Shown: positions 3,027 to 47,331 of the stretch, one piece after another
Numbering within the stretch: position 1 is the first letter of the stretch
How the letters are laid out: every line of letters starts with the position of its first letter
NCBI RefSeq assembly: GCF_002849655.1
Contig: NZ_PDNW01000002.1
Span: 310,001-374,000, forward strand
From: Pollutimonas subterranea
Lineage (GTDB): Bacteria; Pseudomonadota; Gammaproteobacteria; Burkholderiales; Burkholderiaceae_B
Length of the DNA stretch: 64,000 nucleotides
Direction: 5' to 3'
Notes under the pieces: generated by a model
The model's database searches: none
The model's input: the letters and a program-made list of their open reading frames with translations, nothing else
Told to the model about the DNA's origin: nothing
Made by a program: the position numbers and the translations under genes

Positions 3027-4940
3027 ATGAAACTAACCACCGCGGTTCGATTAGCCGCTTTATTTGGAAGCGTGCTGCTTGCGCAGTCTGCTTCAGGGGC
3101 CGAAATGGCCGAGCAAATCTGGTCTGGTGGCCCCATCCTGACGATCGACCAGAGTCGGCCGCGCGTTGAAGCGGTAGCAGTCAAGGACGGCAGGATTCTG
3201 GCTGTGGGTTCCAGTAGCGAAATAGAGCGTTATCGCGGCAAGCAGACCGTTATGCACGATCTGGGAGGACGGACATTGCTACCGGGCTTTGTCGATGCGC
3301 ATGGCCATGCCTTCATGATCGGCTTGCAGGCGGTCTCAGCCAATTTGTTATCGCCGCCCGATGGCAAGGTGAAAGACATTAAAGGTTTGCAAAGTACGTT
3401 AACGCAATGGGCGAGCGAGCATGCCTCCACCGAGAAAAGTATCGGCATGATTCTAGGTTTCGGCTATGACGACGCACAACTGGCTGAACAACGGCATCCG
3501 ACCCGTGACGATCTTGATCTAGTGTCCAAGGACATACCGGTCATGATTATTCATCAATCAGGTCATATCGGGGGGATGAACAGCAAAGCGTTGGAGCTTG
3601 CCGGGATCACTGCGGCAACGGCCGATCCTCAAGGAGGTGTTATCCGTCGCGACAAGGAGGCTTCACGGCCCAATGGTGTGTTGGAGGAAGCAGCGTTCTT
3701 CAATGCGCTGGCCAAGCAGTTCAATGGGATGAGCGCAGCGCAAGCGCAAGCGCTGTTTGTGGCTGGCACAGAGTTACTGAGCAAGTACGGCTACACCACG
3801 GGCCAGGAGGGACGCGCCACGTCGACCATCGTGCCCTTTATGCAGCAGTCGGCAGCGGCAGGAAAAATACCCATCGACGTTGTGACCTATGTGGACGTTC
3901 TGCAAGACAGGGACTTTATCGCCAAGCATGCCAGCAAAACGTATATCAATGGCTTTCGGGTCGGCGGCGCCAAGTTGACTATTGACGGTTCGCCACAGGG
4001 CTTCACCGCCTATCGCGACCGCCCTTACTACAACCCGCCCGAGGGCTACCGGGCGGACTATCGCGGCTACTCGGCGGCAACCCCTGAACAAGTGTTCGAT
4101 TCCATCGACTGGGCATTCCAGAACGATATCCAAATCCTTACCCATTCCAATGGCGAAGCGGCTTCCGATATATTGTTGGCTGCAATAAAAACAGCCAGAG
4201 AAAAGCACGGCATCAAAGATCGCCGGGCCGTATTGATTCATGGCCAGTTCCTGCGCAAGGATCAAGTCGCCACCATGGACAAACTTGATGTTTTTCCTTC
4301 CTTGTTTCCCATGCACACGTTCTACTGGGGCGACTGGCACCGCGATCGCACGGTTGGTCCTATCAACGCCGACAATATTTCACCAACCGGCTGGGTACGC
4401 GAGCGTGGCATGATGTTTTCTTCGCATCACGATGCACCGGTCGCTTTTCCCGATTCGATGCGCGTGCTATCAGCCACGGTCACACGCCGTTCGCGTTCGG
4501 GCGACATCCTGGGGCCGCAACAGCGCGTCGACGTGATGACCGCACTGAAGGCCATGACGATCTGGCCGGCCTACCAGCACTTCGAAGAAAGCGACAAGGG
4601 ATCGATCAAACCCGGCAAGTTGGCTGACTTTGTTGTGCTGTCTGATGACCCTACAGCGATCGATCCTGAAAAATTGAGCGGTTTGAAGGTAGAGCAAACC
4701 ATCAAGAAAGGCAAGATCATCTATCAGGGTCAAGACAGTAACGCCCAGACCCACACAAACAGAGCGGCTGTCGGCGACGTCATTTCGCGCCTGCTGCATG
4801 AATGGCAGCACCATGATGAAGAATCAGGCCGGGGCGGCCACAGCCACGGACCTGAACTTCTGATGGGCGCAGTGGCTCAAGGGCTTGCTCAACGCAAGTC
4901 TCCTGAAGGTCCGGGCACCACTTCAGAACCGATACGTTAA
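3027..4940 (+). CDS. Exported amidohydrolase, YtcJ-like (amidohydrolase 3 family)
   Basis: The gene encodes a predicted periplasmic metal-dependent hydrolase of 637 residues. A signal peptide ends near ASGA (residue 25). The N-terminal beta-sandwich strand is followed by the metal ligand motif DAHGHAF near residue 92, later His-bearing motifs THSNGEA and LIHGQF, and an Asp-bearing segment SSHHDAP near the end of the barrel. These match the YtcJ/AepA group, whose substrates are mostly unknown N-acyl or amide compounds. The C-terminal tail is His-rich (HEWQHHDEE, HSHG), which is unusual and could bind metal. A GGGAG ribosome site lies at 3016-3020. The 3' end overlaps the convergent autotransporter gene by 18 bp. 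Confidence 0.85.
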   Translation: MKLTTAVRLAALFGSVLLAQSASGAEMAEQIWSGGPILTIDQSRPRVEAVAVKDGRILAVGSSSEIERYRGKQTVMHDLGGRTLLPGFVDAHGHAFMIGLQAVSANLLSPPDGKVKDIKGLQSTLTQWASEHASTEKSIGMILGFGYDDAQLAEQRHPTRDDLDLVSKDIPVMIIHQSGHIGGMNSKALELAGITAATADPQGGVIRRDKEASRPNGVLEEAAFFNALAKQFNGMSAAQAQALFVAGTELLSKYGYTTGQEGRATSTIVPFMQQSAAAGKIPIDVVTYVDVLQDRDFIAKHASKTYINGFRVGGAKLTIDGSPQGFTAYRDRPYYNPPEGYRADYRGYSAATPEQVFDSIDWAFQNDIQILTHSNGEAASDILLAAIKTAREKHGIKDRRAVLIHGQFLRKDQVATMDKLDVFPSLFPMHTFYWGDWHRDRTVGPINADNISPTGWVRERGMMFSSHHDAPVAFPDSMRVLSATVTRRSRSGDILGPQQRVDVMTALKAMTIWPAYQHFEESDKGSIKPGKLADFVVLSDDPTAIDPEKLSGLKVEQTIKKGKIIYQGQDSNAQTHTNRAAVGDVISRLLHEWQHHDEESGRGGHSHGPELLMGAVAQGLAQRKSPEGPGTTSEPIR

Positions 4941-7900
4941 ACGGGCGCTTATGTTCTGCGAGCGGTAGCTGCTGCCGGCTTGCAGACCATATTCCGCGTT
5001 CAGATCCAGCCCGTCCTTGTTAAACATATGCACGCCCAGGTTTAAGCGACCGACGATTGACGGTGCTTCGGTGGTGACATTGAACGTGCCGGTAGAATTG
5101 ATTGCCCCAATAAAGCTGTTCTGGCTGGTACGTCGGTTGTTCGGTAGAAAACTGACGCCTGTACTGGCATAGACGCGCAAGGATGTGTTCCCGCTCGGGT
5201 CATAGCGTGTGCCGAGTTCCATCATCGGCGTGATCGCCACGTTGGTATTGCTCACGGAACTCATATTCAAACCCAGCGGGCCGGCACCTGATTCGCTGAA
5301 CGCTGGGCTGCGGTTGTGCATCACATCCAAGTCAAGGTAGGGACGAAGGTAGCTATCCTCGAGATTGATGTCGTAGGCCGTGCGCACGCGTGCGCCTACC
5401 ATCGTCATTTTTGATTGGCTGGAATAAGTGGTATTCAGCCCCAGCGCATCGCCCACTCCACCCAGTTGGGGCCGACGGTCATTGCGAAAGGTTCCGTGAG
5501 CGGCTGCCAATGCGCCCGTGATCGACCAATTGCCAATCTGGCGCTTGAGTGACACTGAGGCATCAAAGACTTCACCCTTGCTGGTAAAGCCGTCCGAACT
5601 CAGGCGATTCAGGTTTGCCCCGAATGTGGCTCCAAACGTCCATTGATTATCCAGCTGGCGCTGTACACCCAGCCGCAACCCACCTCCCTCGGACTCATAG
5701 CCCAGGTTGTGGCCGTTGGCGGACTGGTCAGTGAGATTGCCGCTAGCCCGCGCCCACACACACCCGGTTCCATTCACGCGTACCGCAGGAGTGTGGAACA
5801 TTGGGCAGCTCATGCCGTCGCTGAAACTGTTGTAGGCGCTGGCCAGCATTTGTTGCGGTTGCGCGTGCAAATGTTGACCGCCCAATTGGTCCAGTGTGTA
5901 TTGATAATGGCCGCTGCCATTGACGTGGTTCAGGTAACCGAACAAACGGGCCTTGCCGCGGTCGGCACGGTTCCAGCCACGTTCGAGGTACGACACCAGA
6001 CTGTCGGCCGTCTCACTGAGCCCTAGTCCGGCAGGGCGAAAGTTGGCAATGGGAGTGATGGACAAGCGGTTACCGTCCAACTGGTGCTTCCAGCTGAACA
6101 GCAGCGACTGTTTGATTGCGCCGGTGAAGTTCAGTGCGGATGCCTCGATAATGGCATGGTCAGTTGGCAGCAAGGAAATTGCGTGCGCCTCGACGATGCC
6201 ACCTAAGTTGGCAACGCCCTTGATTGCCAGCGCGTCGTGCGTCGCACCCACATTGGCAGCGTCCACGGTTATGACCGTGCGCCCGCTGTCGTACTGGTTG
6301 AGCCGTCCGTCTATCGTGGTCGTGCCCACCGTGTCAATCAAGCCTACGTTGAGGACACCGTAGTTATCCAGACTGCTGCCGTCGATCCGGTAGCTCGCTC
6401 CGGCGTTCAGAATACCGGTTGCTTTGTTGGTGACATTACCCGGTGTCGACCCTAGATCAATGCTGCCGGTGATGGCGCCGCTGTTATCGACATTCGTGAC
6501 CCCGTAATCGGCCTGGATGGCATACCCGCTACCGGCACCTCCGTGTGTCGTGATCGAGCCAGCCTTAGTTACGGTAATTGTGTTTTCGAAGCCCGACTTT
6601 TCGACGCCACCGCCCGATACCATCACACCGACGCCATTCACTTTCCGATTCGTGCGCGGATTGGTGGCGGTACGGCCACCAATGACTTCCCCTTCAATGG
6701 AAATGTCTATACCGTTCTTGTCATGGTTGGCATATGAGCCGCCACTCTGAGCGAGGATCGCCACGCCACCGATCGCCCGCGTCTCCACAATAGTGTTGGG
6801 CGAGGTGGCAATCGATATGCCACCACCATAACCGTCGATCATATTCGACGCTTCGAAGCGCAATGCCCGGTCGGTCATCGTTTCGTTGGCGAACTCCTGG
6901 GCCGCCACGATGCCGCCCGAAGAGCCAAGGCTTTGGGCGACGATGGCATGGGCGTTGACAATATCTTCACCTTCCTTGCCCTGACCCACGATAATCGACG
7001 AACCCGAAGTGACCGAGACCGAGATATCGCCGCCATGCGTGCCGCTTTTGCGGGAAGAGGCGACATTCACGTCAGGTACGTACAGCAGATCGGCTGACAG
7101 ATCACCAACGACGCCGCCACCAGAGCCGATGGATTGGGCCAGTATGCCCCAGGAGCCATGTCCGGCGGCGGTGATGTCCATCCCCGACACACCAATGTTT
7201 ATGTCGCCTCCACTGCCTCCGGGCTTAGCGCTACCCGCGATAGTCGCGTACGCAAGATTGGCCATGTCGGCGGTCATATAGCCGCCTCCGCTGCCAATGG
7301 ACTGAGCCAGGATGACGGGGCTGCGATCGCCTGTCGTCGCATAGGTTCCCGCGCCGGGGTCCAGCGTTATGGCCCCGCCGTTCCCCTTGCCGTCACCCGC
7401 GAGCTCAAGGTGGAAGAGCTGCTGGCCGTTCAGGAATTTTGATGGGATATGCTCGCCAGGCGGTGTGTCACTGTCGGCTGTACCCGCATTGGTGTGGCAA
7501 GCGCTTGCCCCCAGGGAGCCGGAAGCGCGACCGCTGTTCGTGCAACCTACACTGGCCACGCCACCGCCGCCGCCGATCGACTGCGCGAATATGGCCGCTG
7601 CGTCATCGCCCGCTGTTTGAACTTGGCTTACCGTTGACACCGAAAAATTCGTAGTACCGAAATAGATGCTTCCACCATCGCCCGACGACGCCTTGGACGC
7701 ATCGATGCTGCCCAGGGTCACGGCTGGAACGTCGGCCCCGGCCAGCTTGCCTCCCAGACCAAAAATGGAACCCTCGTGCGCAACACCGCCGCCCCCACCA
7801 ACAGACTGCATGAATACCGCATGAGAACCATAGCCCGAGGTTGCGATGAAGTTGTCCGATGCCGTCCCGCCGAAACTGCTCGTGTCGACGCGGACATTAC

Positions 7901-10900
7901 CGCCGTTCCCGGCTGTGCCGCCCTTGCCACCGACGTTTACCGCAAGATCAAAATCCGCGCCGGTCAATGGGCTGAGGTCGATGTCGGCATCCACCAGGGC
8001 ATCACCCGCGGCGCTGCCCGCCTCGCCGCCGCCACCGCCAACTGATTGGGCGAAGATCCCATAGGAACGATGGCCTTGCGTAAGAATAGTGGTGTTCTTG
8101 CCTATCGACACATCCACCTCGCCTCCGTTGCCGCCAGCGCCGCCGGTACCGCCCACGCCGACGCCCACGGACAAAGCCTTGGGAAACTCGTGTTCCTTTT
8201 TCTCCCAGTTCACGACGCGGCTTGCCAGCCACATGATTGTGCCCTTGGCATCCATGAGCTTGTTCGCGTCATCAATGATGATTTCAGCGAGGTCCGGCAG
8301 CAGCGCCTTCGAAGGGTCAGCGTTGCCCGCCTTGCCACCACCGCCGCCGATCGATTGCGCCACGATGCCATGCGAACCGCCACCCACCGCGATCGGTGTC
8401 GTCAAGGATGTACCGCCCGACGTATTCTCGTACTGAACCTGATAGCGGCCACCCGTACTGATCTGCCCGGAATAGTTCACGGTAACCTTGCCGCCATTGT
8501 TCCCAGAGCCTCCATCGCCTCCCGCAGCAATCTGCGTCTTCAGCTTGCCACCCACGCCCTGCGTTCCGGCGTCGCCGGCGATACCACCACCGCCCCCGAT
8601 GCTTTGCGCTGTGATGCCACTCGCCCCGGAGCCCAATGTGCGGATGACAGAGGCTGAGCGCGAAGCGACCGTCACATCGCCACCGCCGGCTCCCTTTCCG
8701 CCCTCGCCGCCCACGCCTAAAGCGACACTGTAGTTGGCTTCTTCAAGGGGGACCGCAACCACGGTGGCCGCGTTGCCTACTCCGCCCATACCGCCGCCGC
8801 CGCCAATCGATTGCACCAGAACGGCATTGGCATTGTGGCCGCGGGTCGTCTGCGTGCCCGACAAGCCCAGACGAACCTTGCCACCCTTGCCGCCAGCACC
8901 GCCGGTGCCACCCACGGCCACTGCTGTGTTGAGGGCAAATTCGGAGTTCGCCAGGAAGGAGCCGCTGCCCGCTGTAGCGTCCCCACCGATGCCTCCGCCG
9001 CCGCCGATAGACTGCATGACAAAGCCAGTCGAAGACGCACCTTGCGTTTGCATATCATTGACCAGGTCGAAATCGATGTTGCCGCCATCGCCGCCTATGC
9101 CTCCGGAACCGCCAAGACTCATGCTGATGGTCACGTTTGGCATTTCCGGTATGGAGAGCGCCGAGAACGCTGCAGCGGTGGAAGCGCCACCCATGCCGCC
9201 TCCGCCTCCGATGCTCTGCAGCGCCATGCCGAAAGCATCGTGACCAGTGGTCACGACATCGCCGATCGACGAGCCGCTCGCTGCGCCACCAGCGCCTCGG
9301 ATGTCGCCGCCATTGGCGCCTTTGCCGCCGCTGCCGCCCACCGCCAGCGACACGGTAATTCCGGTACCGGCATCATAACTGTGCGCCGCGCCGCCTTTTC
9401 CCCCGCCCGAACCCATCGTCTGGACCACGATGCCATGTGCGTGCTGGCCCGAGGTAGTAATTGTTCCTGTCTGATCTGTGCCGGCATCGTTCAGGCCGCC
9501 CAAGAACACGTCCCCACCCGTGCCCCCGGGACCTCCTGAACCGCCCACAGTACCTGTTACCACCGTGCCCAGGGAGAACGCCTTGGCGTACCCGCCGTTG
9601 CCCCCGCCACCGCCAATGGACTGCATCAACACTCCCTGCGCGTAGTCCCCGGTAGTGATGATGGTGCCGCCGTTCTTTTGGGAAAGGCTAAGTGTGCCCG
9701 CCGTGCCGCCTGCACCGCCCTTGCCACCAACCGCAACAAAGAGTCCGGCCGCGTTGCCCCCGTTGCCGCCGCCACCCGCGATTGACTGCATGTGCAGCCC
9801 GATAGCGCCGTCTCCTGTGGCCGTAATCTTGCCGCCGTCGCCCACGTAGGAAATGTTGCCGGCCGTGCCGCCGACGTTGCCGGAACCACCGACGAAAGGA
9901 AATATGCCACCGCTGATACTGGCGCCGTCGCCAGCGATCGATTGGGCCAGGATGCCGATGGCTTGACTACCCGAAGCAGTAACCGTGCCTTGGTTGGTCA
10001 CCGTGATGTTGCCGGCCTTGCCCGGGCTGGTCTGCGTGCCGGGCGTGGTGCCGCCGAAAGGGTGCTGGTTCCAGGCGACCGAGCTGTTCGCCAGGATACC
10101 GATCGTGGTGTCCGTGGCGGTGGCCTTGTCGGTGATGTTGCCCACCGTGATGCGACTGTTGGCGTCAAGCGATACTGACACGTCGCGGTAGCTGTTCGGG
10201 TCGCCATGGATAACCGGCTTGCTATCGCCCTTGCCAAGTGGATTATCCGCCGTACTCGTGGCGACCAAGCCGATCACATTGGTGCTGGCAAGATCAATGG
10301 TGCCGGCCTGAAGTTGGACATCGACATTGCTGCCGCCACCGGATACGCCCAGCCATTTCTGCGTATTGCTGGGGTCTTCGGAAGCTGCCCCGACGCTCGC
10401 CGCAACAATCCCCATGGTGTACGGCGCGTTTCCAGTCAGCGCTCCGTTGAAACTCAGATCCACCTCGCCGCCTTTGCCGTTGTCAGCCATGTGCCCGTCA
10501 CCATGCCCACCCATGCCTCCCTGAGATAAGGCAAGAACGCCAACCACGGGAGAATCAGCCCTGGTCGTCAAGGGATCGCTTTCGGACCCCAGTTGTAGCG
10601 TGGCCCCCTTGCCCACGGTAACCTTGACGTTGCCGCCGAAGGCCCCAGCTCCCGACAGGTCGACCCTCTGGCCCATGGAATCCGTAGTCTGGCTGGTGTA
10701 GCCATCGCCTCCTTTGGAAACGGCGTTAAGGAGTGCTGCGCCGGCGCGCCACGGAAGACTGCTGCTGCCCTTGGCCAGCCCGCCAGACGCGATCAGGCCG
10801 GTCCCGCTCGCCGTCTGGAGATTGACAACGAGGGCCGATCCGTTGGCCGCTTGCCGCAAGTGGTCGCCCTCTGTCCAGCCGTCGGCTCCTCCGGAACGGA

Positions 10901-11408
10901 ACTGATAAGCACTGGTAGGCCCCTGCAGCCGGCCCGCGAAAGTTACTTGGTCGAATTGCACCTTCAAGGGCGCCGAAACAGTGACGTCGAGCTTGGGGCC
11001 GACCGCGCCGGAATCGTGCTTCTTGTCTTGAGCGCCCTTACCGAAGATATATACAAGGTTGCGCCCTGGCGGTAGCGCGAGGCCATTTTGGAATGCCGCG
11101 ATCCCGGCCGATGATGTTTTGACATTGGCCGTAATGGTGGCCGTTTTATCGTCTGACTTATGACTGAAGATCAAGCCATAGTGATTGACGCTGGACTTGG
11201 CATCAAGCAACAAGGAAGCATCGAATTCGGCCGTGACGTCAATCTCGGTATTCGCTTTGACTGACTTCCCGTCGATCTGCCATTGGTGGTTCGTGTCAGC
11301 CTCTGACGTTTCAAGCGTCACTGTTCCGGCCTGCACATTCAGCGACACACCCGAAATCAATAAAAAATATGACAGCAAGCGCGGAGGAAGGTTATTGATT
11401 CTTTTCAT
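4923..11408 (-). CDS. Giant autotransporter (type Va) with Gly-rich repeat passenger
   Basis: This is a 2161-residue surface protein. An N-terminal signal peptide ends near VQAG (about residue 28). The passenger (about 30-1860) carries about 16 copies of a motif of the form A-Q-S-I-G-G-G-G-G-x-G-G, each preceded by a short beta-strand segment, which is typical of right-handed beta-helix adhesin-like passengers. The last 295 residues form an autotransporter beta-barrel ending in the terminal Phe of LTYRF, the usual BAM signal. Two Cys pairs are visible, one just before the barrel (SCPMF, GCVWARAS). I chose the ATG at 11408 over the TTG at 11414. Adhesion or biofilm roles are family inference; no protease triad was recognised. 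Confidence 0.92.
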   Translation of the reverse strand: MKRINNLPPRLLSYFLLISGVSLNVQAGTVTLETSEADTNHQWQIDGKSVKANTEIDVTAEFDASLLLDAKSSVNHYGLIFSHKSDDKTATITANVKTSSAGIAAFQNGLALPPGRNLVYIFGKGAQDKKHDSGAVGPKLDVTVSAPLKVQFDQVTFAGRLQGPTSAYQFRSGGADGWTEGDHLRQAANGSALVVNLQTASGTGLIASGGLAKGSSSLPWRAGAALLNAVSKGGDGYTSQTTDSMGQRVDLSGAGAFGGNVKVTVGKGATLQLGSESDPLTTRADSPVVGVLALSQGGMGGHGDGHMADNGKGGEVDLSFNGALTGNAPYTMGIVAASVGAASEDPSNTQKWLGVSGGGSNVDVQLQAGTIDLASTNVIGLVATSTADNPLGKGDSKPVIHGDPNSYRDVSVSLDANSRITVGNITDKATATDTTIGILANSSVAWNQHPFGGTTPGTQTSPGKAGNITVTNQGTVTASGSQAIGILAQSIAGDGASISGGIFPFVGGSGNVGGTAGNISYVGDGGKITATGDGAIGLHMQSIAGGGGNGGNAAGLFVAVGGKGGAGGTAGTLSLSQKNGGTIITTGDYAQGVLMQSIGGGGGNGGYAKAFSLGTVVTGTVGGSGGPGGTGGDVFLGGLNDAGTDQTGTITTSGQHAHGIVVQTMGSGGGKGGAAHSYDAGTGITVSLAVGGSGGKGANGGDIRGAGGAASGSSIGDVVTTGHDAFGMALQSIGGGGGMGGASTAAAFSALSIPEMPNVTISMSLGGSGGIGGDGGNIDFDLVNDMQTQGASSTGFVMQSIGGGGGIGGDATAGSGSFLANSEFALNTAVAVGGTGGAGGKGGKVRLGLSGTQTTRGHNANAVLVQSIGGGGGMGGVGNAATVVAVPLEEANYSVALGVGGEGGKGAGGGDVTVASRSASVIRTLGSGASGITAQSIGGGGGIAGDAGTQGVGGKLKTQIAAGGDGGSGNNGGKVTVNYSGQISTGGRYQVQYENTSGGTSLTTPIAVGGGSHGIVAQSIGGGGGKAGNADPSKALLPDLAEIIIDDANKLMDAKGTIMWLASRVVNWEKKEHEFPKALSVGVGVGGTGGAGGNGGEVDVSIGKNTTILTQGHRSYGIFAQSVGGGGGEAGSAAGDALVDADIDLSPLTGADFDLAVNVGGKGGTAGNGGNVRVDTSSFGGTASDNFIATSGYGSHAVFMQSVGGGGGVAHEGSIFGLGGKLAGADVPAVTLGSIDASKASSGDGGSIYFGTTNFSVSTVSQVQTAGDDAAAIFAQSIGGGGGVASVGCTNSGRASGSLGASACHTNAGTADSDTPPGEHIPSKFLNGQQLFHLELAGDGKGNGGAITLDPGAGTYATTGDRSPVILAQSIGSGGGYMTADMANLAYATIAGSAKPGGSGGDINIGVSGMDITAAGHGSWGILAQSIGSGGGVVGDLSADLLYVPDVNVASSRKSGTHGGDISVSVTSGSSIIVGQGKEGEDIVNAHAIVAQSLGSSGGIVAAQEFANETMTDRALRFEASNMIDGYGGGISIATSPNTIVETRAIGGVAILAQSGGSYANHDKNGIDISIEGEVIGGRTATNPRTNRKVNGVGVMVSGGGVEKSGFENTITVTKAGSITTHGGAGSGYAIQADYGVTNVDNSGAITGSIDLGSTPGNVTNKATGILNAGASYRIDGSSLDNYGVLNVGLIDTVGTTTIDGRLNQYDSGRTVITVDAANVGATHDALAIKGVANLGGIVEAHAISLLPTDHAIIEASALNFTGAIKQSLLFSWKHQLDGNRLSITPIANFRPAGLGLSETADSLVSYLERGWNRADRGKARLFGYLNHVNGSGHYQYTLDQLGGQHLHAQPQQMLASAYNSFSDGMSCPMFHTPAVRVNGTGCVWARASGNLTDQSANGHNLGYESEGGGLRLGVQRQLDNQWTFGATFGANLNRLSSDGFTSKGEVFDASVSLKRQIGNWSITGALAAAHGTFRNDRRPQLGGVGDALGLNTTYSSQSKMTMVGARVRTAYDINLEDSYLRPYLDLDVMHNRSPAFSESGAGPLGLNMSSVSNTNVAITPMMELGTRYDPSGNTSLRVYASTGVSFLPNNRRTSQNSFIGAINSTGTFNVTTEAPSIVGRLNLGVHMFNKDGLDLNAEYGLQAGSSYRSQNISARLTYRF
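6720..9965 (-). repeat. Glycine-rich repeat array inside the autotransporter passenger
   Basis: About 16 degenerate repeats of roughly 60-100 codons share a core reading AQSIGGGGGxGG on the minus strand, seen on the plus strand as runs such as ccgccgccgccgat. Units toward the C-terminal end of the passenger decay to QSIGSGGG, QSLGSSGG and finally QSGGSYAN. This gives local high GC and a strong strand bias. It is protein-level repetition, not a CRISPR or satellite. Confidence 0.85.
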
Positions 11409-11715
11409 CGACAATTCCGGAGGTGATGACGGAATCGCGGAGCTATTTCACAATTGACGCGTCAACAAGATCGCCGGAGTTTTTCATGAAGCGTCGATTC
11501 TGGTCAGTCTCAAATTTCTCAATCGTCTCATTGAGAGCTTCGCGGAGCGCTGCCGAGCTCGATGAAATTGCCGTACTCTCGTCTCAGAAACCGATTAAAA
11601 GAAAGTCAACATCGGTGCTCTATGGCTTCCAATCTTTCCTCGCGCCGGATATAGTGAACGTTGCCGGTCTCCGCAGGAGTCCACTGCGGATTGCCAAAAA
11701 TCGTCAACGATATCC
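11409..11715. promoter_or_regulatory. Divergent intergenic region with two palindromes
   Basis: This 307-bp gap separates the start of the autotransporter (leftward) from the start of the hydrolase (rightward). It holds a perfect 12-bp palindrome TTGACGCGTCAA at 11454-11465, and an inverted repeat TCTCAAT-N6-ATTGAGA at 11517-11536. Both are the right size for dimeric regulator operators. I see no gene, RNA or convincing sigma70 pair in the rest of the gap. Confidence 0.4.
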
Positions 11716-39972: not shown

Positions 39973-40398
39973 ATGCAGCTTACAATGGATTTTCTGGAAA
40001 ACATGGCACTACAACATGGCGACGACGTTGCCATCGCAGATGCAAGCACTCAGGTCAGCTATTCAGAACTCGTCACCGCCGTCAACGCACTGGCGGTTGC
40101 ACTGCAGTCCAAAGACCCTGTACCCGGGTCACGCGTGGGGCTATGCGCGGCCAACTCGATGGAATATATCGTAAGCATGCTGGCGATACTGGCGGCGGGA
40201 AAGATTCTGGTACCCATGAACTGCCAAGGCACATCCGAACAGATGCTGCAGATCCTCATGGATACACACCCCAGCACCGTGCTGGTCGACGACATCGGCG
40301 ATGCCCTCGTCAAAAGCGACGATGACCTGAAGATTCCGTTCTCGCAGTTTCCCGGCCTGGTCCTGACCTATCGCGACCAGAAGCCGGCGACTACATAG
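39973..40398 (+). CDS. Short AMP-binding-domain protein (N-terminal fragment)
   Basis: The 141-residue product matches only the N-terminal subdomain of ANL adenylating enzymes (LENMALQHGDDVAIAD, SRVGLCAANSMEYIVSMLAIL, GKILVPMNCQGT) and stops before the ATP-binding P-loop. Full members have over 500 residues. In another frame just after the stop the sequence reads DYIVVPGSPTATAFIVTTT, which resembles continuation of the domain, so a frameshift or truncation is likely. It could also be a maintained small protein. DoxX follows 57 bp downstream. Confidence 0.6.
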   Translation: MQLTMDFLENMALQHGDDVAIADASTQVSYSELVTAVNALAVALQSKDPVPGSRVGLCAANSMEYIVSMLAILAAGKILVPMNCQGTSEQMLQILMDTHPSTVLVDDIGDALVKSDDDLKIPFSQFPGLVLTYRDQKPATT

Positions 40399-41872: not shown

Positions 41873-42109
41873 TCAATCCTCGGAGGTGTCACCCAACAAG
41901 CCGACGTCGCGCGATGCCTCGACGTGGCGCACGCCCTGGATATGGCCCAGTGTATCTATTCGCGTAGCGTCCACCGTGCCGTAGATGACGCCTATCGATG
42001 TCATTTGACGCTGCACAGCCATGCCGACGTCTGCGCAGCGGTCGACGACTTCCGCGAATTGTCCTAGAAAAGCGTCGTCCACCAGGACGGTTACCAGGAT
42101 TCGGGTCAC
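41873..42109 (-). CDS. Small propeptide/inhibitor I9-like partner of the subtilisin
   Basis: This 78-residue protein starts with GTG, overlapping the subtilisin stop in a GTGA arrangement, so it is translationally coupled to it. The order of segments (strand ILVTVLV, helix FAEVVDRCADVG, strands MTSIGVIYGTV, helix DTLGHIQGV, strand VRHVEASRDV) matches the beta-alpha-beta-beta-alpha-beta layout of inhibitor I9/subtilisin propeptides. No signal peptide is present. I infer a trans-acting folding helper or inhibitor of the upstream protease. I cannot name a described family. Confidence 0.7.
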   Translation of the reverse strand: MTRILVTVLVDDAFLGQFAEVVDRCADVGMAVQRQMTSIGVIYGTVDATRIDTLGHIQGVRHVEASRDVGLLGDTSED

Positions 42110-43437
42110 GGTATACGCTCCTTCATGCCAGGTGCCTGGACCAGGCCTGCCCCGACATCGCGGGATGGCTGCGTCAGGCGCCTTGCTGTCTGAACCAGGA
42201 TATTGAGCAGCGCGCGGCTGCGTAAGCCGGGATCGGCCTGGGCGTGCAGGGCCGCAATCCCGGCAACGAAAGGGGTCGCCATGCTGGTGCCGCTTATGGT
42301 GTTATGCAGTTGTGGTGCAGGCCATGACGATAAAACACCAACCCCTGGGGCCGCGATGTCGACCTGTCCACCGTCCGGCACCAGTCCTCCGCATGAGAAC
42401 GGAGCGATCTGCAACACCTGGTCAATGGCGCCCACCGCGAAAATCGATGGGCAATTTGCCGGATGAGACACCGGCGCGATCAGCTCCGGGCGCCGACTGT
42501 CGTTGCCGGCGGCCGCAATAATGACGGTCCCCGCGGCCAATGCGCGTCGAGCCACCTCTTCGAATACTTTGGAATAACTCTCCTCCTGCTCGAGCGAGCT
42601 GCCCAGCGACATGGATATGATCTGGCATCCCTGCTCGATGGCCCAGTTGATTCCCTCGAGCACACCGCCGTCTGCACCGCCGCCCTGGTCGCCAAGAACC
42701 TTCCCGATATATAGTTCCACATTGCCCGCCACACCGTAACGTGGCCCGCTGGCGGGCTGTGATGGTCCGGCGGCAATGCCCGCGCAGTGCGTACCGTGTC
42801 CGTTACCATCCTGAACCGGCTCGCCATCCACGAAGGAACGCGACACAATCTGACGACCTGCGAAATCAGGATGAGACAGGTCCAGCCCGGTATCCAGGAC
42901 GGCCAGCTTTACGCCCTCTCCCGTATAGACAGAGGTGGCGGCGCGTGTCGCGTCCACGCCCCAGGAATAAGATGTTTCGTCCGGCGGCACGGAAGGCTCG
43001 CGAGTGATGGCCGGCTGTCCCTGGCGAGCCAGCGTGCGGTCCACGAGCTCATTCACCGCGTCGCGATATCCATTCAGGTAACTGGTCAGCGAATCCGAGT
43101 CGTTCGAAGAGAAAGCCGGAATACCAATATCCCTGGGCCCGGCAATAGCCCTGACCTGCCTTTCGGGCTCTATGGCAAGAATTGCCGGATTATGTTCCTG
43201 TGCCGCCATGTTCAGCAAGCGGCGCTTGCCGTCGCTGCAACGGAGCAGCGCCACGCCAATTCGATCGAACACAATGGCGCACTGGTCGGCCAGTTGGGTA
43301 CGAGACAGCTCGTCGGCCGTTGCGGCGGCAGTACTGGCCACCTCGCCGCCCGTCAGTGCTTTCAGGGCGTTGACGGCATCCAGCTTCCGATCCTGGCACA
43401 ACAAGACCAGGTAGCGGTTGGTCGGGGTCGGGTCCAT
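42106..43437 (-). CDS. Subtilisin-like serine protease (S8), probably cytoplasmic
   Basis: The 443-residue S8 peptidase keeps the triad Asp182 (AVLDTGLD), His214 (DGNGHGTHCAG) and Ser385 (SGTSMATP), with the oxyanion Asn in AAAGNDS. An N-terminal region of about 100 residues (YLVLLCQDRKL, GVALLRCSDG, AILAIEPERQV) looks like a built-in propeptide. No signal peptide or membrane anchor is seen. The ATG at 43437 has AGGAG 8 nt upstream, favoured over the frame to 43464. It starts 46 bp after pstB with no obvious terminator between, and its stop overlaps the small partner gene. Confidence 0.9.
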   Translation of the reverse strand: MDPTPTNRYLVLLCQDRKLDAVNALKALTGGEVASTAAATADELSRTQLADQCAIVFDRIGVALLRCSDGKRRLLNMAAQEHNPAILAIEPERQVRAIAGPRDIGIPAFSSNDSDSLTSYLNGYRDAVNELVDRTLARQGQPAITREPSVPPDETSYSWGVDATRAATSVYTGEGVKLAVLDTGLDLSHPDFAGRQIVSRSFVDGEPVQDGNGHGTHCAGIAAGPSQPASGPRYGVAGNVELYIGKVLGDQGGGADGGVLEGINWAIEQGCQIISMSLGSSLEQEESYSKVFEEVARRALAAGTVIIAAAGNDSRRPELIAPVSHPANCPSIFAVGAIDQVLQIAPFSCGGLVPDGGQVDIAAPGVGVLSSWPAPQLHNTISGTSMATPFVAGIAALHAQADPGLRSRALLNILVQTARRLTQPSRDVGAGLVQAPGMKERIP

Positions 43438-43483: not shown

Positions 43484-44263
43484 CTAGCCGAATCGGCCGG
43501 TTATGTAGTCTTCGGTTTCCTTGCGGCCCGGCTTGACGAAAATCTGGTCGGTCTCGCCAAACTCCATCAGTTCACCCAGGTACATATAGGCCGTGTAGTC
43601 CGAGCAACGGGCGGCCTGCTGCATATTATGGGTCACGATGACGACGGTGTAATCGGACTTGAGTTCGGCGATGAGCTCTTCGATCTTGGCCGTGGAGATC
43701 GGATCAAGCGCCGAGCATGGCTCGTCTAGCAGAAGAATTTCTGGCTTGATGGCCACGCCGCGGGCAATGCACAAACGCTGCTGCTGTCCGCCCGACAGGC
43801 TGTTGCCACTTTGGTTCAGCTTGTCTTTGACCTCGGTCCACAAAGCCGCCTTGGACAACGCCCATTCCACGCGCTCGTCCATTTCACCCTTGCTGAGCCG
43901 CTCGAACAAACGCACGCCGAACGCAATATTGTCGTAAATGCTCATGGGGAACGGCGTGGGCTTCTGGAAGACCATGCCAATCTTGGCGCGAAGCAAGGAA
44001 ATATCGGTCTTGGACGACAACAGGTTTTCGCCATCAAGGTTGATCTCACCCTCGGCGCGCTGGCCCGGATAGAGTTCGAACATGCGGTTGAAGGTGCGCA
44101 ATAGCGTGGACTTGCCGCAACCCGAAGGGCCAATAAAAGCCGTGACCTTGTTTTCTTTGATGGACAGGTTCACATCTTTGATCGCCTGGTATTTTCCGTA
44201 ATAGAAGTTCAAGTTTTTGACTTCCAGCTTCGTGCGTTCAGGTGTCTGTATAGAGTGTGGCAT
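43484..44263 (-). CDS. pstB: Phosphate ABC transporter ATPase PstB
   Basis: The 259-residue ATPase powers high-affinity phosphate uptake with PstA and PstC. Walker A is [12 protein letters not shown], the signature is [13 protein letters not shown], Walker B is [12 protein letters not shown] and the family-specific segment [12 protein letters not shown] lies at the N-terminus. It is 39 bp downstream of pstA. In many relatives phoU comes next; here a subtilisin gene does. Confidence 0.97.
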
Positions 44264-44302
44264 AAGGATTTCCCGGTGGAAGCAAGGCTCCCAGCCATTT
44301 TG

Positions 44303-45163
44303 TCATTTACGGAAAAGGCTGCGCGCGGCAATATTGATGCCCAACACCAGCAAAGTGATCAGGACGGCACCCGCCCACGCCAGGCGATTCCAGTCCTCGA
44401 ACGGACTGGCGGCATACTGGAAGATGACGACAGGAAGGTTGGCGATGGGCGCACTCATGTTCATGGACATGAACTGGTTGTTCAGCGCGGTAAACAGCAA
44501 AGGCGCGGTTTCGCCGGAGATACGGGCAATGGCAAGCAGGATACCTGTGATGATGCCCGAGCGCGCAGCCCGATAACAGATATTCATTATGATGCGCCAC
44601 TGTGGGCACCCCAGTGCCGCGGCGGCCTCGCGCAGGCTGTTGGGAACCAGCAGCAACATATTGTCGGTGGCTCGCACGACAACCGGAATCACCAGTATGG
44701 AAAGGGCCAACGCACCTGCCCACCCTGAATAATGCCCTACCTGGGCCACATAGGTTGCGTAGATGAACAGGCCGATAACGATGGACGGCGCCGACAACAA
44801 CACATCGTTAAGAAAGCGGGTAGCCGGAGCCAGCCAACCCCGCTGGCCATACTCGGCCAGATAGGTTCCGGCCAGTACGCCGATAGGCGTGCCGATAAGC
44901 GTGCCTACCGCTGCCATCATGACGCTGCCCAAAATAGCGTTGAGCAGACCGCCGTCTGCGCCTGGAGGCGGTGTCGCTTCAGTGAATAGCGTCAACGACA
45001 GCGCCGATCCGCCTTTGACGAACAAGGTAAGGATGATCCAGCAGAGCCAAAACAAGCCGAATATGACGGTAGCGGAAGACAAGCCCAGCATTATTCGATT
45101 GAAACGCTGTCGCTTCTTGTAGACCGGGTTGGACAGGGTGACGACGGAATCAGAAGTAAACAT
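44303..45163 (-). CDS. pstA: Phosphate ABC transporter permease PstA
   Basis: The 286-residue inner-membrane subunit has about six helices and the PstA-type EAA loop region [18 protein letters not shown]. Other typical segments are [18 protein letters not shown] and [16 protein letters not shown]. It is 14 bp downstream of pstC and pairs with it to form the phosphate channel. Confidence 0.96.
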
Positions 45164-45177
45164 GGCTTATGGCTCGG

Positions 45178-46116
45178 TTAGTGCGAGGTCCCTTCGCCCT
45201 TGGAGAGGCGAAGAAGCAGGAGTTTCGAGAAAGCCAGCACGACGGTGGTGATCAGGAACAGGATCAGGCCGAGCTCCAGGAGCGCAGCCTTCTGCATACC
45301 GCCTGCCTCGTTGAATTCATTGGCCAGCGCCGATGCAATGGAATTCGATGGAGCAAATATGGATGAAGGCAGGTTGAAGGCATTGCCGATCACGAACGTG
45401 ACAGCCATGGTTTCGCCCAAAGCGCGCCCCAGCCCCAGCATGATGCCGCCGATTACGCCGCTTTTGGTATACGGCAGGACGACTTTCCAGACCACTTCCC
45501 ATGTCGTGCTGCCCAGGCCGTATGCCGACTCCTTGAGCAGCGGGGGAACGAGTTCGAACACGTCGCGCATGACCGCCGTAATGAACGGAATCACCATGAT
45601 GGACAGGATGAGCCCCGCCGTGAACACGCCTATGCCGAAAGGCGGACCGGCGAATATGTCGCCCAACACCGGAACGCCTGCGAAGAAATCAATGACATGC
45701 GGCTGAATATACTGCTGGAATATGGGCACAAACACGAACAGTCCCCACATTCCGTAAATAATGGATGGAATGGCGGCGAGCATTTCAATGGCAGTGCCCA
45801 AAGGCCGGCGCAGCCAGACCGGAGAAAGTTCGGTCAGGAACATGGCAATGCCGAACGACACAGGCACTGCAATCACCAACGCAATCAGCGACGTAAGCAG
45901 CGTTCCCACAATGGGTACCATTGCACCATATACGTTTTGTACGGGATCCCAGTTATTGGTCCATAAAAAGGCTATACCGTGGGCTGCGATGGACTCCCGA
46001 CTTCCATAGAGCAGCGACGCCATGATGGCAGCGAGCAATATGAACACCAGAAACGCAAAAGTGCGCGTCAGGTTCTTGAACAGAGCGTCCATGAGCGCGC
46101 TTCGATTATTTTTCAT
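45178..46116 (-). CDS. pstC: Phosphate ABC transporter permease PstC
   Basis: The 312-residue inner-membrane subunit has six helices. The EAA loop [20 protein letters not shown] in outline and [15 protein letters not shown] with [16 protein letters not shown] are PstC hallmarks. It is 171 bp downstream of pstS, with a strong stem-loop in that gap, and followed directly by pstA. Confidence 0.96.
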
Positions 46117-46215
46117 GTCGGCTTTTTAGCGTTTCGTGGAAAGACCATGAGTATAAAAACACACGAGCACCAGGGTAAAAGGAATGCAAGAAGAGTTACC
46201 GCCATTTTTGCACAA

Positions 46216-46249
46216 CAAGGACGGCGCCATCTGCACAGCACCGTCCTTG
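46216..46249 (-). other. Stem-loop in the pstS-pstC spacer
   Basis: CAAGGACGGCGC (46216-46227) pairs with GCACCGTCCTTG (46238-46249) over 12 positions with one mismatch and a 10-nt loop. No U-tract follows in the direction of transcription, so it is more likely to stabilise the abundant pstS message or dampen downstream expression than to be a full terminator. Confidence 0.55.
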
Positions 46250-46287
46250 CATGACTTGCGGGAAGACCGGAGATCCGATTTTACCCG

Positions 46288-47331
46288 TTACTTCCAGATA
46301 GCACTGCCATCAGCGGCCTTGATCTCGGTTTTCCACGCTTCGGCGATCTGGTCGGTGACGCTGGCAGGCATGGGAACATAGTCGAGTTCTTCGGCCATCT
46401 TGCCGCCCTTCTTGAACGCCCAGTCAAAGAAAGCAAGCGTTTCCTTGCCGTTTTCAGGCTTGTCCTGCTTCTTGTGGACCAAGATGAAGCTGGCCGACGT
46501 TACAGGCCAGGATTCGGCACCGGGCTCTTCGGTCAGCACTACGCCCATTCCGGGTGCGCTTTTCCAATCGGCATTGGCGGCCGCGGCGGCAAATGCGGCT
46601 TGCGTAGGCTGGACAAATTGACCGTCTTTGTTCTTGAGCTGGGTCCAGGACAGATTGTTCTGCTTGGCATAGGCATACTCGACGTAGCCGATCGAGTTCT
46701 TGAGCTGGCGAACGTAGGCGGCGACGCCTTCGTTACCCTTGCCGCCCTGGCCGGTGGGCCACTTTACTGCCTTGCCTTCGCCGACCTGTTCTTTCCAGGC
46801 GGGAGATACCTTGGACAGATAATTGGTCCAGCCGAACGTTGTGCCCGATCCGTCTGAGCGATGAACAACAATAATGGAGGCGCTGGGCAGCTTGAAATCG
46901 GGGTTCATGGCCTTGATTGCCGCGTCATCCCATTTGGTGATCTTACCCAGGAAGATATCGGCAAGCACAGGGCCCGTGAGCTTGAGCTCGCCGGGCTTGA
47001 TACCGGCGACGTTGATGACAGGAACCGTTCCACCGACAATGGCGGGAAACTGGAACAAGTTGTCCTTTTCAAGGGCATCGGCCTTCATTGGATCATCGGA
47101 CGCGCCGAAATCGACTGTCTTGGCAATGATCTGTTGTTGCCCACCACCCGAACCGATGGACTGATAGTTGATCCGATTACCGGTTTCTTTATGGTATTGG
47201 GCAGCCCATTTTGCATAGATAGGATACGGAAACGAAGCGCCTGCACCGGTAATGTCGGCAGCATGGGCCGTCAGAGAAGCCGCAGCAAAAGCGACGCCGA
47301 CCGAAACCTGTAATAAAACGCGTTTGAACAT
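46288..47331 (-). CDS. pstS: Phosphate-binding protein PstS
   Basis: The 347-residue periplasmic receptor has a signal peptide ending AHAAD (about 25) and phosphate-site motifs GAGASFPYPIYAKW, SIGSGGGQQQ, DFGASDDPM and RSDGSGTTFGW. An AGAGGA ribosome site lies 8 nt before the ATG. It is the first gene of pstSCAB and sits behind a Pho box. Confidence 0.97.
   Translation of the reverse strand: MFKRVLLQVSVGVAFAAASLTAHAADITGAGASFPYPIYAKWAAQYHKETGNRINYQSIGSGGGQQQIIAKTVDFGASDDPMKADALEKDNLFQFPAIVGGTVPVINVAGIKPGELKLTGPVLADIFLGKITKWDDAAIKAMNPDFKLPSASIIVVHRSDGSGTTFGWTNYLSKVSPAWKEQVGEGKAVKWPTGQGGKGNEGVAAYVRQLKNSIGYVEYAYAKQNNLSWTQLKNKDGQFVQPTQAAFAAAAANADWKSAPGMGVVLTEEPGAESWPVTSASFILVHKKQDKPENGKETLAFFDWAFKKGGKMAEELDYVPMPASVTDQIAEAWKTEIKAADGSAIWK

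What the first reader, a model, noticed from the sequence alone, without database searches (positions are those of the whole stretch)
41873..43437. Cytoplasmic subtilisin coupled to a separate 78-residue propeptide-like protein
Seen: an S8 protease with intact triad and no signal peptide, whose stop overlaps a GTG start of a 78-residue protein. The small protein has the strand/helix order of I9 propeptides, and the protease also has its own N-terminal propeptide-like region. Known: I9 domains fold or inhibit subtilisins, usually in cis. Inferred: a two-gene protease plus trans inhibitor or chaperone, similar in logic to toxin-antitoxin pairs. I cannot recall a named system of this form in Burkholderiales.
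Basis: partly seen in the sequence, partly recalled or inferred. Interest (0 to 1): 0.72.

Follow-up and report, generated by a model that had tools for sequence, protein, structure and literature searches.

The report
Cytoplasmic subtilisin with separate propeptide-like partner
Bacteria from several distant groups carry a subtilisin-type protease without an export signal, followed by a gene for a small separate protein shaped like the inhibitory propeptide of subtilisins, which probably keeps the protease switched off inside the cell.

Summary
A 443-residue S8 protease (43437-42106, minus strand, intact triad, no signal peptide) ends in a GTGA overlap with a 78-residue ORF (42109-41873).

The ORF is a real gene: purifying selection, a Shine-Dalgarno site, and a strict tie to this S8 subfamily. 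It is absent downstream of 36 of 36 control subtilases. Four S8 orthologues lack it.

[quoted passage not shown] Its best PDB matches are subtilisin propeptides (Foldseek E 2.8e-3, VIA Z about 9), though other ferredoxin-like folds follow closely and Pfam I9 stays below cut-off. A single-chain model of a relative's catalytic domain, natural linker and partner gives pTM 0.88, as expected if docked; the site could not be seen. The protease's own N-terminal domain resembles the partner (moderate support).

Best reading: a trans-acting I9-like inhibitor, perhaps also folding helper, of a cytoplasmic subtilisin. Most relatives outside the window's family have a PP-containing C-terminal tail, often ending in Gln. 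Inhibition, trigger and role are inferred. New variant of a known kind.

The parts
42106..43437 (-). S8 (subtilisin-type) protease, 443 aa, no signal peptide, stop TGA at 42108-42106
   Evidence: PF00082 E 1.8e-52; triad and oxyanion Asn invariant in 63 of 63 rows
43126..43437 (-). N-terminal domain of the protease (residues 1-104), probably a cis propeptide-like domain
   Evidence: hhalign against the small-protein family: score 28.3, best of 200 column shuffles 15.8; weaker in a smaller sample; no PDB propeptide by sequence
42126..42966 (-). Catalytic domain with D182, H214, N312, S385 (residues about 158-437)
   Evidence: the corresponding domain of relative L108 matches subtilisins at VIA Z 40
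41873..42109 (-). 78-residue I9-like (subtilisin-propeptide-fold) partner protein, GTG start
   Evidence: AF2 fold; Foldseek and VIA; conservation; selection
42106..42109 (-). GTGA overlap of the protease stop and the partner's start (translational coupling, inferred)
42118..42123 (-). AAGGAG Shine-Dalgarno-like site, 8 nt before the GTG
   Evidence: sequence printed
41876..41902 (-). Low-confidence C-terminal tail of the partner (residues 70-78), without the PP...Q tail of distant relatives
   Evidence: pLDDT below 50 at residues 70-78; tails listed

Best explanation
The pair is an intracellular subtilisin and its dedicated, trans-acting I9-like propeptide protein. The protease carries its own N-terminal propeptide-like domain, which probably helps it fold and may be cut off. 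The second gene, translationally coupled in the window, supplies a separate protein with the propeptide fold. That protein binds the catalytic domain where cis propeptides bind, with its C-terminal tail towards the active site, and keeps the protease latent in the cytoplasm until an unknown signal removes it. Shown here: the genes, their overlap, conservation of the pair, the predicted fold, and a confident relative placement of the two domains in a model of a relative. Inferred: the binding site, inhibition, latency, release, and any folding help.
For: Propeptide fold: AF2 pLDDT 86.7; first six Foldseek rows are subtilisin propeptides or pro-subtilisins, best E 2.8e-3; VIA Z up to 9.2 to them. 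Small gene under purifying selection. Single-chain model of relative L108: pTM 0.88, partner 96-98 pLDDT, tail 86-90 with a short strand at 391-393; an unplaced partner would give about 0.70-0.74. Similarity of partner and cis N-terminal domain. Conserved PP...Q tail in many relatives, with a proline lock as precedent in intracellular subtilisins (PMC6220982, passages). Eukaryotic stand-alone I9 proteins are potent subtilase inhibitors (PMC6993865, passages).
Against: Sequence evidence for I9 is weak: PF05922 in 3 of 17 members (best E 0.046) and 5 of 28 (best 0.023), none at cut-off level, and other ferredoxin-like families match single members as well or better, such as PF18152 at 0.0006. 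No Foldseek match reaches 0.001; NapD ties at Z 9.2, although at rmsd 6.3. In a broader profile a designed repeat protein outranks the propeptides. Four S8 orthologues with intact triad have no partner in place and no convincing one in their genomes, so the partner is not always needed. The PP...Q tail is absent from the window's own partner. AlphaFold may place any propeptide-like domain on a subtilisin from memory of known complexes, and the construct was from a relative.
Confidence: 0.68

Rival explanations
1. The small protein is mainly a trans-acting folding helper (foldase) for the catalytic domain; inhibition is incidental and short-lived.
For: Subtilisin propeptides are both chaperones and inhibitors (PMC10580911 abstract in the listing and passages). 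Co-translation in the window by GTGA overlap suits a folding partner.
Against: The protease already has its own N-terminal, probably propeptide-like domain. Four orthologues with intact triad do without the partner. Many relatives have a conserved PP-containing tail, which looks like a stable rather than a cleavable end.
Confidence: 0.15
2. The pair is part of a conflict system: a toxic protease with an antidote, or an anti-phage protease kept silent by the small protein and released by infection.
For: Patchy distribution with phyla intermixed in the protease tree. Copies on seven plasmid records. Protease-inhibitor logic.
Against: No PADLOC model for the small protein; the protease matches only a generic subtilase model and weakly IetS. 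No match in 50,697 phage records. No conserved third gene found. In six genomes of the window's family the pair sits behind pstB.
Confidence: 0.08
3. The small protein is a ferredoxin-like protein of another kind (for example a chaperone like NapD or a ligand sensor) that binds the protease elsewhere or acts on something else.
For: The fold is common: NapD ties at VIA Z 9.2, and ACT and S6 domains score 7 or more. Weak sequence matches are spread over several ferredoxin-like families.
Against: Of 350,542 PDB chains the best-ranked are subtilisin propeptides, and the gene is tied to a subtilisin. The NapD match has rmsd 6.3 against 1.8-2.9 for most propeptides. pTM 0.88 fits a docked domain.
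Confidence: 0.07
4. The 78-residue ORF is not a functional gene.
For: Short, GTG start, no family model.
Confidence: 0.02

Closest known systems
Plasmodium SUB1 and SUB1-ProM (PMC6993865; passages read)
   Same: Stand-alone propeptide-like protein beside subtilase genes; inhibits a subtilase; same fold order.
   Different: Eukaryotic; probably in the parasitophorous vacuole, not a bacterial cytoplasm; gene lies by several subtilase genes, not a two-gene operon.
Eukaryotic stand-alone I9 inhibitors: POIA1, yeast proteinase B inhibitor, Arabidopsis SPI-1 (PMC6993865 passages)
   Same: Separate small proteins with the subtilisin-propeptide fold; POIA1 structure is among the VIA matches at Z 7.1.
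   Different: Not encoded next to their protease as a bacterial pair (recalled); no PP...Q tail known to me (recalled).
SpeB-Spi and staphopain-staphostatin (PMC2873492; passages read)
   Same: Bacterial protease gene next to, and co-transcribed with, a dedicated inhibitor; Spi is a propeptide analogue.
   Different: Cysteine proteases (C10, C47), exported; inhibitors of other folds.
Bacillus Isp1 and IPI/BsuPI (PMC3901451; passages read)
   Same: Intracellular subtilisin and a protein reported to inhibit it.
   Different: IPI has an Ig-like fold and is not encoded near a subtilisin gene in completed genomes; Isp1 has an 18-residue propeptide.
Protealysin and emfourin (PMC9505478; search listing only)
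   Same: Intracellular bacterial protease; emfourin as its small partner inhibitor (recalled).
   Different: M4-type metalloprotease; emfourin is not I9-like (recalled).

Membership tests
Peptidase family S8 | Subtilase domain with Asp-His-Ser triad and oxyanion Asn | tested here: met
   PF00082 E 1.8e-52, above cut-off; residues invariant in 63 of 63 rows
[quoted passage not shown]
   AF2 elements E3-10 H12-27 E31-36 E41-47 H48-54 E60-65; best PDB matches are subtilisin propeptides
Inhibitor family I9 (small protein) | Sequence match to PF05922 at the curated cut-off | tested here: not met
   No match for the window protein at E 10; 3 of 17 and 5 of 28 relatives match weakly, best E 0.046 and 0.023. 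I therefore call it I9-like, not a member of the Pfam family
Inhibitor family I9 (small protein) | C-terminal tail enters the active-site cleft | tested here: inconclusive
   Ordered tail with a short strand in the model of relative L108; no coordinates; the window's own tail is disordered when modelled alone
Inhibitor family I9 (small protein) | Inhibits a subtilase | not testable with these tools
   needs an enzyme assay
Intracellular subtilisins (ISP) | Short N-terminal propeptide with LIPY/F motif | tested here: not met
   No LIPY/F in the first 45 residues of 63 of 63 S8 rows; a domain of about 100 residues instead. Motif from PMC6220982 passages
Intracellular subtilisins (ISP) | No signal peptide | tested here: met
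   Hydrophobicity scan only
IetAS defence system | IetS-type protease at family level | tested here: not met
   IetS models match weakly, best E 2.1e-8 over part of the profile, and NCBIfam IetS scores 12.8 against a cut-off of 900
Toxin-antitoxin pair | One product harms the producing cell unless the other is present | not testable with these tools
   needs expression with and without the partner

The most novel reading that the evidence does not exclude
A so far unnamed class of two-gene intracellular protease switches, spread over at least seven bacterial phyla and partly plasmid-borne. A subtilisin with a cis propeptide-like domain is held by a second, separately made propeptide whose proline-rich C-terminus acts as an active-site lock that resists cleavage, so that loss of the partner releases a cytoplasmic protease, as in toxin-antitoxin logic.
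Probability: 0.33. Interest if true: 0.78.

Novelty: new variant of a known kind. Interest (0 to 1): 0.6.

Why it matters
How a cell keeps a general protease safe in its own cytoplasm is known for few bacterial cases. If the pair works as proposed, it is a widespread bacterial counterpart of the eukaryotic stand-alone I9 inhibitors and an S8 counterpart of the SpeB-Spi operon, with both a cis and a trans propeptide. It would give a testable function to an unannotated small gene found in several phyla, and the four S8 orthologues without it are natural comparisons.

Tried and rejected
Conserved third gene: all-against-all comparison of neighbouring ORFs gave mostly antisense or alternative frames of the protease gene itself; one cluster over 10 loci lies away from the pair and was not identified. 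Promoters and terminators: one sigma-70-like site where shuffles give 0.8, three terminator-like sites where shuffles give 1.4; not informative. Phage records: no match. N-terminal domain against PDB sequences: only a nitrile hydratase chain at E 0.52. Idea that the pair displaced phoU behind pstB: phoU lies elsewhere on the same contig, about 0.33 Mb away; nothing follows from this.

Rows set aside. Weak small-protein matches with no such S8 beside them were treated as chance: 13 of 30 genomes, 5 of 8, 3 of 7 (S8 looked for within the roughly 1.5 kb held on each side). Iterated-profile hits in control loci L066, L076, L143, L146, L147, L150 and L166 were left out of the small-protein alignment: those in L066, L146, L150 and L166 lie in the S8 ORF itself and may be its cis propeptide; L143 and L147 lie in an ORF just upstream of the S8; L076 is on the strand opposite to the S8. 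Five duplicate rows were dropped before the counts, leaving 60. L120 and L124 (Chryseobacterium) were first accepted by eye; they match the profile only because they had been put into it.

Full report
What is there. On the minus strand a 443-residue S8 protease (43437-42106) is followed by a 78-residue ORF (42109-41873) whose GTG start overlaps the protease stop. AAGGAG lies 8 nt before that GTG. The protease has PF00082, the triad and oxyanion residues in 63 of 63 aligned rows, and no hydrophobic N-terminus. Its closest solved relatives by sequence are ordinary subtilisins, Carlsberg first at E 1.2e-40. Pfam, NCBIfam and PADLOC have nothing for the small protein. On the same strand upstream are an ABC ATPase, two permeases and a binding protein that I read as pstB, pstA, pstC and pstS, then a polyphosphate kinase; a patatin-like gene converges from the other side (Pfam domains; pst names by order and recall).

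Is the small ORF tied to this protease? Of 151 genomes of the same family, 30 match the small protein at E 0.1 or better. Seventeen, the window's own included, do so at 1.2e-8 or better. All 17 lie directly after an S8 orthologue, at offsets of -4 to +54 bases; in one (L019) the S8 frame is broken. The other 13 genomes show no such S8 within the 1.5 kb held on each side. With the protease alignment, 26 of the same 151 genomes have an S8 at 1e-20 or better. Seventeen at 1.2e-79 or better are the same 17 genomes. The other nine, at 7.3e-38 or worse, have no small gene beside the S8.

Wider samples. Of 300 genomes of the order, 8 match the small family at 0.01, three with the S8 beside it; of 299 of the phylum, 7 match, four with the S8 beside it. 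The genomes not counted before (G358, G489, G590, G621) make 21 of 21. In G489 the S8 frame is broken near its start. The other S8 genes found there (164-216 bits) have no small gene, 0 of 9. The rarity is itself a result: outside the family the pair is in few of the sampled genomes.

Named organisms. A scan of genome contigs with the protease alignment returned a capped list of 80 loci. In 44 the S8 scores at least 353 bits, in 36 at most 233 bits, with nothing between. A profile of the small protein found a partner just downstream in 37 of the 44 at first pass (weakest E 3.4e-5) and one more after iteration; two Chryseobacterium loci have a diverged ORF of similar layout, accepted by eye. 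That makes 40 of 44, against 0 of 36 downstream in the controls. Three Saccharopolyspora loci and one alphaproteobacterial MAG lack it. Genome-wide, two of these four genomes give no match at 0.1 and two give unconvincing ones (0.019, 0.03), while three positive controls give their own locus at 6.8e-25 or better. Phyla, by record title: Pseudomonadota, Actinomycetota, Chloroflexota, Cyanobacteriota, Bacteroidota, Bacillota, Acidobacteriota. Seven of 72,556 plasmid records carry the protease. In the six with annotation a separate hypothetical protein follows, and the small profile matches it in all six.

Selection and inheritance. The small gene has dN 0.136 and dS 0.692 against the nearest relative, the protease 0.12 and 0.883; four other pairs of small genes also have dN below dS. 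Distances of small protein and catalytic domain correlate (r 0.77, 58 pairs, 0 of 1000 permutations as high). This is expected of any adjacent pair that travels together and shows no contact. Phyla are intermixed in the protease tree (12 label changes where 6 is the least), which fits transfer but does not prove it. Of 18 related regions fetched, five have pstB directly before the pair, as the window does; their pst proteins are 87-98% identical to the window's, while the pair diverges faster.

Fold of the small protein. The AF2 model from 17 sequences has pLDDT 86.7, with only residues 70-78 below 50. Against 350,542 PDB chains the first six Foldseek rows are subtilisin propeptides or pro-subtilisins. 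The best E is 2.8e-3 and none reaches 0.001; NapD is seventh, and ACT domains and others follow. VIA gives Z 8.2-9.2 to many propeptides; NapD ties at 9.2 but with rmsd 6.3; POIA1 is at 7.1. By sequence the family profile's best PDB hit is the subtilisin E propeptide at E 0.33. A broader profile puts a designed repeat protein first (0.011), then the Tk-subtilisin propeptide (0.044), with MinC at 0.046. Pfam I9 is the family that most members match, but weakly: 3 of 17 and 5 of 28, best 0.046 and 0.023. Single members match other families better, for example PF18152 at 0.0006. So the fold is well supported and membership of Pfam I9 is not established.

The protease's own N-terminal domain. Residues 1-104 align with the small family at hhalign score 28.3, against at most 15.8 in 200 column shuffles, 9.9 reversed, and at most 11.2 for S8 windows from column 135 on. 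A smaller sample gives P 0.0014 over 38 columns and probability 18%. PDB sequence search finds no propeptide, and Pfam I9 matches none of 19 full-length rows. I call it probably propeptide-like. Glu92 in its EPER-like end is Glu in 58 of 60 rows; the corresponding Glu64 of the small protein is Glu in 36 of 60.

Contact. Two chains could not be folded together. In relative L108 (Pseudonocardia) the small gene lies in frame 35 codons after the protease stop, so reading that stop as Trp gives one chain with a natural linker. The model has mean pLDDT 92.2 and pTM 0.88. The linker is disordered (298-319), the partner domain is at 96-98, and the last residues at 86-90 with a short strand at 391-393. 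I estimate pTM 0.70-0.74 if the partner were unplaced and 0.85-0.89 if placed within 3 Angstrom error. This supports a definite placement. It does not show where, it lacks the N-terminal domain that could compete for the site, and AlphaFold may repeat known subtilisin-propeptide complexes. The catalytic part matches subtilisins at Z 40.

Tail. Of 43 small proteins from outside the window's family, 31 have PP in the stretch after the last strand, 24 end in Gln and 29 in Gln or Trp (family split counted by me from the list; true C-termini of the 39 named ones rechecked, where PP is within the last 14 residues in 28, and L159 has it further in). A proline lock has a precedent: in intracellular subtilisins a proline of the LIPY/F motif moves the scissile bond out of reach (PMC6220982, passages). 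The window's own tail lacks the motif, so this idea may not hold in its family.

Known systems. The stand-alone I9 proteins named in the paper I read are eukaryotic (PMC6993865, passages). Bacterial protease-inhibitor gene pairs are known for cysteine proteases, and Spi is a propeptide analogue (PMC2873492, passages). The Bacillus Isp1 inhibitor IPI has another fold and is not encoded near a subtilisin (PMC3901451, passages). I found no paper on this S8 pair in eight answered searches of an open-access library; most subscription papers are not held, so this is no proof of absence.

Verdict. The pairing is strong, the I9-like fold well supported, the docking indirect, the inhibition inferred. 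I rate it a new variant of a known kind.

Noticed in passing
L019 (G062) and L043 (G489): The S8 gene has a broken reading frame while the small gene beside it is open: either decay, with the partner outlasting the protease, or sequencing error.
   Followed up: partly
L093, L105, L117 (Saccharopolyspora) and L128 (alphaproteobacterial MAG): S8 orthologues with intact triad but no partner downstream and no convincing one in the genome; natural comparisons for what the partner does.
   Followed up: partly
L143 around 2472-2663 and L147 around 2323-2517: In two control loci (Chloroflexi MAGs by title) the small-protein profile weakly matches an ORF just upstream of another subtilase: perhaps a separate propeptide gene in front of the protease, or a frameshifted cis propeptide.
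   Followed up: no
window 43484-47331 and L174-L178: The pair directly follows pstSCAB in the window and five relatives, while phoU lies about 0.33 Mb away on the same contig; a link to phosphate starvation is open.
   Followed up: partly
window 39973-40398: A 141-residue ORF holds only the first quarter of an AMP-binding enzyme domain (PF00501 positions 2-108 of 384): a gene remnant or a short stand-alone fragment.
   Followed up: no
window 4923-11414, minus strand: A 2163-residue ORF with many glycine-rich GGGG-type repeats and an outer-membrane-like C-terminus by eye, without a Pfam match at 1e-5; looks like an autotransporter.
   Followed up: no
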